Shown here piece after piece: positions 12,201 through 15,200 of a DNA stretch of 64,000 bases. Every line of letters begins with the position of its first letter. Position 1 is the stretch's first letter. Made by a program: the position numbers and the translations under genes. This DNA is from Acanthopleura granulata (taxonomy: Eukaryota > Mollusca > Polyplacophora > Chitonida > Chitonidae). Under the pieces are notes generated by a model, which was not told the DNA's origin, made no database searches, and saw only the letters and a list, made by a program, of their open reading frames with translations. The stretch lies in assembly GCA_016165875.1 (NCBI GenBank), contig JABBOT010000009.1:17106790-17170789 (forward strand). Direction: 5' to 3'.

Positions 12201-15200
12201 GATTCACTTCTACCAAGTTTTGTTGAAATTGGACAAAAACTGTAACAGTAACTAGTAGTATTTTGAAAGAAATGTCAACATATACTAAATAAACAGAGAG
12301 ACAGACAGACAACCAATCATCAAAATGGAAAATCGATAATAAGAGTTATGTATCTCAATGTAGTCTACACTTAAACCAAGTTTCGTGGAATTCGACAAAA
12401 AGTGTAGGAGAAGTAGCGTTTTGAAAATGTGAAACATATTCTGTATGAACAGAGAAATGGACAACCGATGATTGAAACAGAAAATCGAAATGGATTTGAT
12501 AGATATCAGAATTTAAGCCAACAATGATGGCTTCAGACACATCTTAAACTTCGTATTAAGAAATAAAAAGCAGGCACTTCACGTATCCTTCAACGAAAAA
12601 TTACCACCACATAACCACAATGTCAACAACAACAAAAATACAAGCAGAGTGAAGAAAGAACTATCTGAACAGCCACATCACCAGACAATTAGCAACCAGC
12701 ACAACAGAGAAAACATGTCCCGTTTTTTGTTTGTTTTGTTGTTTTTTTTTTTACCTAGAGCCGGGTTGATGTAACGTAAAAAGATGACGGTGCCAATAAC
12801 AGTCCAAACAGTGTCCAGGCTGCTCTGGAAGCGCTGCGTCACCACCTGATACAGACAGTGGCACATGCTGCGCAGCTTGGGCGGAAACCTGGTAAATAAG
12901 TACCCAAAAAATCGTAATGAATGACTGCCCAGCTAGATGTCTGCTTTTGTCATCAGCTGATACAACCACACATACTGCGCAGCTTGGGTGGAAATCCCGC
13001 AAAAAGTACTCAAGAATTTGTTGTGAATGACAGCACAGCAGGACGTGTGTTGTTGTCACCCTGCTAGGCTTGAGTGAAAGTTTGACAAACAAGAATCTGA
13101 CAAATTATTCGAAGTGGCTAACGAATGATTGCCTAGCAACATGTCTGTTGTCACCCAACACACAATGATCGAAACACATATGTGCAGACAGTACATGGAT
13201 ACCTGGCAATGTACAACTGTCTGTCGCCCGAAAGACAGTAATCGACATAGACAGACAGACAGCATATGGATGTGAACATGGAAAGACATACCCAATCACT
13301 GCCTAGTTAGATATCTTTTGTCATTCCAGATAGACAAAGACTAAGACACATAGACATTGTATGAACCTAAACATACAAGGGAAGTCCATGTGATGAGGAT
13401 AATGAGTGGCTGTCCAGTGACATGTCTGTTGTCAACACCTGATAGACGGTGACTGAGAGAGATATATAAGCAAGTATAGACAATGAGAGAAGGAAAACAA
13501 AGCACTGACAAATATGCAGTCAGCTGTTAACATGTCTGCTAGAAGCGCATGTAGTCAGCTGTTAGCACATGTAGTCAGCTGTTAACATGTGTAGTCTGCT
13601 GTCAACATGTGTAGTCAGCTGTTAACATATGCAGTCAGCTGCTATGGTCATCAAATAACTTCCCTATGATATACTGGGCTGGTTGTCTTACCCTGGATAT
13701 GAGGTAGACATGCAGTACACATAGTTTATACTGATGATGCTTCCTGGGAAAATGCTGTATGACCAGGGTTAGAGGTTAGATGGAATGTAGCATGGTGTTA
13801 GAATAGCTTGACAGGTGCAAGAAAATAAAAAAAAAAAACAAAAACTAAAAAAAAGAACAATACAATATGCGATGGTATCCCTGGAAACCCTACCTACAGC
13901 CGGGTTTAGGAAACGGACAAATATGACTCGTCCCGTGATGAGAAAACTATCCTGCGGAAATCGGCGGCAGATGACGTAAAATAAACAATGACAGAGAGTT
14001 CGCAGTTTCGTCGGAAATCTGTTGGAGTCAAGTACCAAAGAAAGGCAGATGATGACATGAACAAAAAAAAAAACCCCAGTGCCACTGATAAGTTTAAAGT
14101 AATACACAAATAGTGTAACTCGGAACAGCGTAAGCTTCATTATGACTCTTATGATTTCAGTACTGATGCTCCTGATGATAGCAAAATAAACTGATGAAAC
14201 ATTGAGTTAGAGCGAAACTTGGATACATTTTACACAGTTCAAAGTTTTCAGAGGAAATCTTTAAGATTCAACTCTCCAAGAGACAAATATTCCATTTCTA
14301 TTCATACACACAGCCATCAAGTTTTTAGCTGATGGAGTATAATACCATCTATGACCAGGTATCAGGCAAATGTCCTGATTTCCCAGGGGAAATCCATGAC
14401 CATCAGCAGGTTATGGTTTATATGAAAATTGTTACAAATGATTAAAATGGACAATGGAAGTGAATGAAAAAATGAATGCAGGAATACTCAAATAGCACAA
14501 AAATGACCAGTCTTTCATTTACACCACAATCTCTCCCTTAAAATACTGACTCAAACTTTTTACGCTAAGAAAAAGCTGCTCCAATATTTGTGTGATTTGT
14601 GTTAAAATGTAATTCTGCCTGCCATTGCAATTTAAATGATTACTACTATTTATTTATCTGATTGGTGTTTTACGCCATTCTCAAGAATATTTCACTTGTA
14701 TGAGGGCGGCTAGTATTATGGTGGGAGAAAACCGGGCCCGGGGGAAACCCATGACCATGTTGGGTGAACCTTACCACGTACAGCCGGAGAGGAAGCCAGC
14801 ATGAGCTGGACTTGAACTCACAAGGGCCACATTGGCGAGAGGCTCCTAGGCCATTATGCCACGCTAGAGGCTACTGTTACTTAGAACACGTGCATGTCTA
14901 GACATCAAACTCATCACCAACTGTCACCATGGCAACACAGGTAGTTCTCACCTTTGAGCAGAGTTGACAATGTCGTCAAACACCTTCTGGGTTATTGTCA
15001 TAAGATTACGTTTGTTCCTCTCTATGCTCTCCCCACTCTCAATCCTACAACACATTATAAGCTTTCATTTTAAACCTAGACGATATAAATTTTATTTTTG
15101 GACAGTGGGAGTGGAGATCTGTGGAAAATGAGGGTCTTCATGACCAGTTTTAAAACCACAATAACTTCCGAACCTTATTTACAATCACGCTCACTTTAAT

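What the first reader, a model, noticed from the sequence alone, without database searches (positions are those of the whole stretch)
12755..14018. Mutually exclusive exon pair inside the neurofibromin RasGAP catalytic domain
Exons 33a and 33b each encode the GRD segment that ends in the RasGAP signature (FVRFLNPA or FLRYINPA). Each has an intact acceptor, donor and open frame, and enters in phase 2 and leaves in phase 1. Including both gives a frameshift and an early TGA; skipping both also gives an early stop. Only a one-or-the-other choice makes protein. Both keep the signature arginine, so both isoforms should be GAPs, with differences concentrated in the helix and loop before it. As I recall, mammalian NF1 places its regulated 21-residue exon 23a in this same stretch, so two lineages may tune Ras-GAP output at one structural position by different splicing devices.
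Basis: partly seen in the sequence, partly recalled or inferred. Interest (0 to 1): 0.88.

Follow-up and report, generated by a model that had tools for sequence, protein, structure and literature searches.

The report
Either-or exon in molluscan neurofibromin
A mollusc's gene for the tumour suppressor neurofibromin carries two alternative versions of the exon that builds part of its Ras-switching core, and the same pair turns up in other snails and bivalves, so molluscs appear to swap a piece of this catalytic domain by splicing at the spot where humans add a different regulated exon.

Summary
On the minus strand of a molluscan NF1 gene, two tandem exons (33a 14018-13894, 125 nt; 33b 12888-12755, 134 nt) encode the same RasGAP segment (human residues 1355-1397). 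Each has acceptor and donor and joins exons 32 and 34 in frame; both or neither gives an early stop. Database proteins support one-or-the-other use: two annotated Pomacea canaliculata isoforms agree at 2797 of 2835 columns, differing only in this segment and one 19-residue insert. Mytilus edulis has both forms; Babylonia, Gigantopelta and Tegillarca show the a form; an Elysia gene model strings a then b. Copies sort (moderate support) into an a and a b group, so the pair probably predates the snail-bivalve split. The exon encodes a helix-loop-helix with the FLR arginine (human R1391), kept in both; b lengthens the FLR helix by about one turn. Human exon 23a inserts within the first of these helices. 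Six paper searches showed no report of it. Not shown: expression in this species, tissue control, or a difference in GAP activity. A new member of a known kind (mutually exclusive exons), at an informative place.

The parts
13894..14018 (-). NF1 exon 33a (a class), [41 protein letters not shown]; human-like length
   Evidence: splice sites and frame; PDB match; falls with a copies of Pomacea, Babylonia, Gigantopelta, Mytilus, Tegillarca and Elysia at support 81/74
12755..12888 (-). NF1 exon 33b (b class), [44 protein letters not shown]; 3 residues longer than human, 4 in the other b copies
   Evidence: splice sites and frame; PDB match; falls with b copies of molluscs and nemerteans at support 88/91
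14952..15044 (-). upstream exon 32, shared
   Evidence: joined frame
9742..9916 (-). downstream exon 34 (VSPYESG...), shared
   Evidence: joined frame
15974..16161 (-). exon with the arginine finger ([10 protein letters not shown], human R1276), shared
16687..16770 (-). GRD exon [13 protein letters not shown]..., shared
12889..13893 (-). 1005-nt intron between 33a and 33b with ordinary GT and AG ends; too long for steric exclusion of splicing
13820..13860 (-). U-rich tract downstream of the 33a donor (best 25-mer 22 T), candidate ELAV/TIA-1-type site
   Evidence: richest of the 42 donor-downstream stretches checked; 0 of 666 overlapping inner-intron windows as rich
12722..12752 (-). A-rich tract that starts inside the 33b donor, complementary to the U-rich tract
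   Evidence: richest of 42; 0 of 666 inner-intron windows; inverted repeat I1; duplex energy not unusual, 51 of 500 random intron pairs as low

Best explanation
This is a genuine, ancient mutually exclusive exon pair of molluscan NF1. The spliceosome joins exon 32 to either 33a or 33b and then to exon 34; transcripts with both or neither are frameshifted and should be removed by nonsense-mediated decay, so only two proteins result. The swap exchanges one helix-loop-helix of the RasGAP domain, the one that carries the FLR arginine (human R1391). Both forms should still be GAPs, because the arginine finger, the FLR arginine and the K1423 and K1436 equivalents are kept. The b form has an FLR helix about one turn longer and a different loop; the a form has human-like length but Y, F or L after FLRF. 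I infer that the two forms differ in GAP rate or in preference for Ras proteins or partners, and that the choice is regulated through intronic elements near the donors. Shown: exons, frames, homology, annotated isoforms in other molluscs. Inferred: decay of the wrong products, different activity, regulation.
For: Exon anatomy and frame logic. No other duplicated exon with splice sites among the NF1 segments hit. Protein-level selection on both copies. Pomacea canaliculata P0029 (X4, a) and P0021 (X8, b), both listed on a contig of 34737321 bases, agree at 2797 of 2835 columns and differ only here and at one 19-residue insert; Mytilus edulis P0023 (X6, a) and P0009 (b) both exist, from assemblies of different contig length, and differ also at eight other places. 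The Elysia crispata model reads a-part then b, the window's order. Tree of 41 rows: a (7), b (21) and other animals (13) each fall on one side of a branch, supports 81/74, 88/91 and 88/80. Eleven columns share no letter between 6 a and 21 b copies: among them RFP against RFQ, TG against VIG with an inserted [DE]xxW, [YFL]NPA against INPA. Model of an Octopus b form: helix 970-986, loop, helix 992-1013 over the exon; best matches human neurofibromin, crystal GRD chains at TM-score 0.90-0.95 by target length. R1391-E63 salt bridge and the 400-fold loss in R1391A: PMC7437355 (passages).
Against: No RNA data here; 'isoform X' names in databases are, as I recall, automatic predictions. No genomic DNA of another mollusc could be read. 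The protein database is clustered at 90% identity, which hides isoforms, so presence is informative and absence is not. The window's 33a is the longest end branch of the tree (0.81), lies in no starred set, is at most 63% identical to another row and breaks an otherwise invariant position (FLR to FVR), so in this species it could be drifting. The tree rests on 45 columns and its bootstrap had not settled. A third homology search, for shorter proteins, gave no hit.
Confidence: 0.87

Rival explanations
1. 33a is a poison or decoy exon: its use mainly produces decay targets or a weak protein, and so sets the amount of neurofibromin rather than its kind.
For: 33a diverges fastest (end branch 0.81) and has FVR in place of FLR; double inclusion gives an early stop.
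Against: 33a alone gives a fully open reading frame with the FLR arginine, N and P kept. The a class keeps frame, length and residues in snails and bivalves and is annotated within coding isoforms.
Confidence: 0.07
2. The pair is real in molluscs, but in this species 33a is a relic that is no longer spliced in.
For: Long 33a branch and departure from a conserved position; no expression data.
Against: Intact acceptor, donor and frame, saturated silent sites without any stop, and the class-specific a residues P, D and T before G are kept.
Confidence: 0.05
3. The duplicated exon is an assembly artefact or an allele stitched in tandem.
For: Repeats can mislead an assembly: an 89-bp tandem repeat lies at 1-226.
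Against: The copies share only 22 of 40 residues with saturated silent sites, and homologous a and b copies exist in other species.
Confidence: 0.01

Closest known systems
Human NF1 exon 23a (exon 31), isoform II
   Same: Regulated splicing inside the RasGAP domain; its 21 residues enter after CHCLYQ 1370, inside the stretch that 33a/33b encode.
   Different: A cassette exon that adds a Lys-rich loop and lowers RasGAP function up to 10-fold (PMC12352984, three sections read); here a whole helix-loop-helix is exchanged and nothing is known of activity. The human junction falls inside the molluscan exon.
coq-2 exons 6a/6e of helminths, annelids and molluscs
   Same: Tandem mutually exclusive exons that exchange part of an enzyme core, found in molluscs (PMC7434440, passages).
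   Different: Function shown by exon removal in C. elegans; a quinone-synthesis enzyme, not a Ras regulator.
Oyster alternative oxidase exon 10 duplication
   Same: Duplicated exon in a mollusc, one conserved and one divergent copy around functional sites (PMC5589949, abstract).
   Different: Last exons of the gene, described in one species, shifted by air exposure.
Muscle myosin heavy chain exon clusters
   Same: Well-known mutually exclusive exon families, including molluscs (PMC3912159, passages).
   Different: Motor protein with several clusters, not a GAP.

Membership tests
Mutually exclusive exons | Neighbouring exons with the same reading frame and splice-site pattern | tested here: met
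   criteria as stated in PMC3912159
Mutually exclusive exons | Similar length and sequence | tested here: met
   125 and 134 nt; 22 of 40 residues equal
Mutually exclusive exons | Both-included and both-skipped products are not productive | tested here: met
   early stops in translation; decay itself not tested
Mutually exclusive exons | Transcripts contain one or the other | tested here: inconclusive
   annotated isoforms in Pomacea and Mytilus; no reads from any species were seen
Neurofibromin (NF1) RasGAP domain | Best match to neurofibromin rather than other RasGAPs | tested here: met
   308-310 bits against 80-88 for p120GAP
Neurofibromin (NF1) RasGAP domain | Arginine finger and FLR arginine present in both isoforms | tested here: met
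   [10 protein letters not shown] in the shared exon, FVRFLNPA / FLRYINPA
Neurofibromin (NF1) RasGAP domain | GAP activity of each isoform | not testable with these tools
   needs an assay
NF1 exon 23a | Cassette exon adding 21 basic residues | tested here: not met
   replacement of a 41- or 44-residue segment, no such insert in it

The most novel reading that the evidence does not exclude
Molluscs (and perhaps nemerteans, which carry the b class) have kept for about half a billion years (age recalled) a splicing switch that exchanges the FLR helix hairpin of neurofibromin, giving two GAPs with different rate or Ras preference. It uses the structural spot that vertebrates tune with exon 23a, and U-rich ELAV/TIA-1-type elements beside the alternative donor may govern it in both lineages.
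Probability: 0.25. Interest if true: 0.82.

Novelty: new member of a known kind. Interest (0 to 1): 0.62.

Why it matters
Neurofibromin is a major brake on Ras and a human tumour suppressor, and much about its human exon 23a is still open. A natural pair of GAP domains that differ in one catalytic hairpin, kept in snails and bivalves, offers matched proteins to ask how that hairpin sets GAP rate and Ras choice, and whether two animal lineages reached the same control point independently.

Tried and rejected
Genome of the window's organism: the genome search 'own' gave a busy error seven times; the same request was repeated as the message asked, and nothing was learned. No conclusion rests on it.

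RNA pairing as the device for exclusivity: the U-rich tract after 33a and the A-rich tract at the 33b donor can pair (-22.3 kcal/mol), but 51 of 500 random intron pairs do as well. Kept only as a hint. Steric exclusion is rejected, since the intron is 1005 nt. Mixed U2/U12 sites are rejected, since neither donor looks like the U12 type (motif recalled; sites).

A third functional copy: besides the pair, the best hit is a 36-nt piece like the start of 33b, without an acceptor, at 12994-12959; the long hit list was cut in display. The Pomacea insert has no clear match in the window (best E 0.17).

Literature: NF1 + mutually exclusive exon + neurofibromin (4 papers), neurofibromin + mollusc (11), mutually exclusive exons + RasGAP (5, 4 listed), at least two of mutually exclusive exons/mollusc/neurofibromin (41, 20 listed), at least three of six terms on molluscs, neurofibromin and alternative exon (2065, 10 listed) and tandem exon duplication + mutually exclusive + NF1 (none). 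In these listings I saw nothing on this exon pair; unlisted papers were not seen. In PMC8803922 the term names an event class (passages). Most subscription papers are not in the library.

Structure of the a form: not predicted. The available full-length a-form proteins exceed the length limit, and spliced or cut sequences are not clearly allowed, so I did not send them.

Full report
What was checked. The window holds most of an animal NF1 gene on the minus strand, from a start codon at 53126 to human residue about 1938 at the window edge. I compared the assembled model with the first 36 of the listed database relatives: the eleven best by score are snails and bivalves at 74-77% identity over nearly full length, followed by a bivalve-independent brachiopod, Lingula. 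It is a mollusc; which class is not settled. Positions of human NF1 use isoform I numbering as in PDB 7r03.

The exon pair. 33a is 14018-13894 and 33b is 12888-12755, both with ordinary AG acceptors and GT donors. Exon 32 leaves AG, which with the first base of either copy makes arginine; both copies leave one base, which with TT of exon 34 makes valine. The lengths (125 and 134) are both 2 modulo 3, so one copy restores the frame while two or none break it: translation meets a TGA in 33b, 84 nt before its end, or a TGA early in exon 34. Both stops lie more than 55 nt ahead of the next junction, which by the usual rule (recalled) should trigger decay. The 1005-nt intron between them rules out simple steric exclusion, so frame plus regulation is the likely basis of exclusivity.

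Not a chance match or a recent artefact. Both joined proteins find human neurofibromin first (310 bits for b, 308 for a) and p120GAP far behind (88 and 80 bits). Between the copies 22 of 40 aligned residues agree, 11 of those with different codons; dN is 0.37 and dS cannot be estimated. A neutral copy would be expected to lose its frame before silent sites saturate.

Relatives. A search with the model, restricted to the GRD, gave 723 proteins, of which 120 were listed; a search with the Pomacea a segment gave 13, one of them new, P0121. I printed this segment for the 120. Two molluscan classes stand out. The b class ([27 protein letters not shown] and near copies) occurs in snails, bivalves, cephalopods and two nemerteans (P0024, P0030). 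The a class (RFPGDSITATGTVIFLRFYNPAL and near copies) occurs in Pomacea P0029, Babylonia P0026, Gigantopelta P0022, Mytilus P0023 and Tegillarca P0121, and as a truncated part in Elysia crispata P0003. The listed annelids (P0027, P0028), brachiopod (P0025), arthropods and deuterostomes lack the W and VIG of b; they share RFP with a (nearly all) but have neither its TATG nor, apart from an odd annelid (P0066, FFNKS), an aromatic residue after the FLRF-type motif. The window's copies carry the marks of a and b: 11 alignment columns share no letter between 6 a and 21 b copies, four of them being the b insertion. The mean identity is 73% within a, 89% within b and 62% between.

Same gene, two forms. 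Pomacea P0029 (isoform X4, a) and P0021 (isoform X8, b) are equal at 2797 of 2835 columns; they differ in this segment and in one 19-residue insert at 1455. P0029 and P0020 (2790 of 2835) differ also by 2 and 5 residues elsewhere. Mytilus edulis P0023 and P0009, from different assemblies, are equal at 2710 of 2847 columns and differ in this segment and at eight other places, mostly insertions or deletions. The Elysia record reads ...CHCLDQVLSLRLPPDFKTDTGTFIFLR directly followed by [22 protein letters not shown]...: an automatic model that strung a and b together, which indicates that a lies upstream of b there, as here.

Age. In a tree of 41 segment rows (38 of the 121 database proteins, Elysia split in two, plus the two window rows) the a, b and other rows each occupy one side of a branch; support is moderate (81/74, 88/91, 88/80), with 45 columns and an unsettled bootstrap, and the window's a copy is a long branch outside any starred set. 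One duplication before the snail-bivalve split is the simplest reading. Nemerteans with b may push it earlier; whether they have a is unknown because the database hides isoforms within 90% clusters.

Structure. A prediction of an Octopus b-form protein (P0004, 1151 residues, 40-row alignment, mean pLDDT 72, pTM 0.53; exon blocks 72-88, lowest in the loop) puts the exon on helix 970-986, a short loop and helix 992-1013 that carries FLRFINPA; crystal GRD chains match with TM-scores of 0.90-0.95 by target length (6ob2, 6ob3, 6v65, 6v6f, 1nf1). The residues added in b sit at the start of the second helix, about one turn. Of the invariant columns of the 40-row alignment in this exon, read by eye, the window's a departs at one (FLR to FVR) and b at one (FLRF to FLRY). 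In human, R1391 pairs with Ras E63 and R1391A costs about 400-fold in GAP activity (PMC7437355, passages). The equivalents of K1423 and K1436 lie in the shared exon 34, whereas K1419 is methionine there.

Human comparison. A query with the exon 23a insert matched 8edo and 7pgp over 57 of 57 residues and isoform I chains only from V1371 on, so the insert follows CHCLYQ, in the first helix of the molluscan exon. PMC7437355 places that insert near the KRAS-binding site (passage). The review PMC12352984 (abstract and three sections) says inclusion lowers RasGAP function up to 10-fold, that neurons mostly skip it, and that ELAVL and CELF repress and MBNL and TIA-1/TIAR promote inclusion through sites near the exon. 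In the window the most T-rich 25-mer in the stretch +7 to +106 after 42 donors follows 33a (22 of 25), and the most A-rich follows 33b (21 of 25); none of 666 overlapping inner-intron windows reaches either. This was noticed after the fact in one species and is a lead only.

Verdict. The exon pair and the one-or-other reading stand (0.87). That it tunes Ras signalling is a reasonable but untested inference. It is a new member of the known class of mutually exclusive exons, in a protein and at a site of unusual interest, and I saw no report of it in the listings of six searches of the paper library.

Noticed in passing
window 1-226: 2.5 copies of an 89-bp unit (97% matches) repeat the end of the NF1 exon for human residues about 1909-1938 with its donor; the copies are out of frame with each other, so later donors would shift the frame, or the assembly is at fault.
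   Followed up: partly
window 12959-12994: A partial, acceptor-less copy of the start of exon 33b lies 107 nt upstream of it, inside a loosely repeated stretch of the 33a-33b intron.
   Followed up: partly
Pomacea canaliculata P0029, residue 1455: A 19-residue extra segment (SLEVHTENFLCEAAEGPQRL in place of R) near the end of the GAP domain is present in X4 and absent in X8/X9, so a second alternative exon may exist in the snail gene; no clear match in the window.
   Followed up: partly
window 5693-6324: A 50-bp minisatellite, 12.6 copies with a 151-bp higher order, lies in an NF1 intron.
   Followed up: no
window 11177-11380, 14640-14804, 15725-15901, 18287-18499: Look-alike open frames of a dispersed repeat beginning near ATTGGTGTTTTACGCC; possibly a molluscan SINE (recalled).
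   Followed up: no
window 9742-9916: The shared exon 34 has methionine where human neurofibromin has K1419, a Ras-contact lysine.
   Followed up: no
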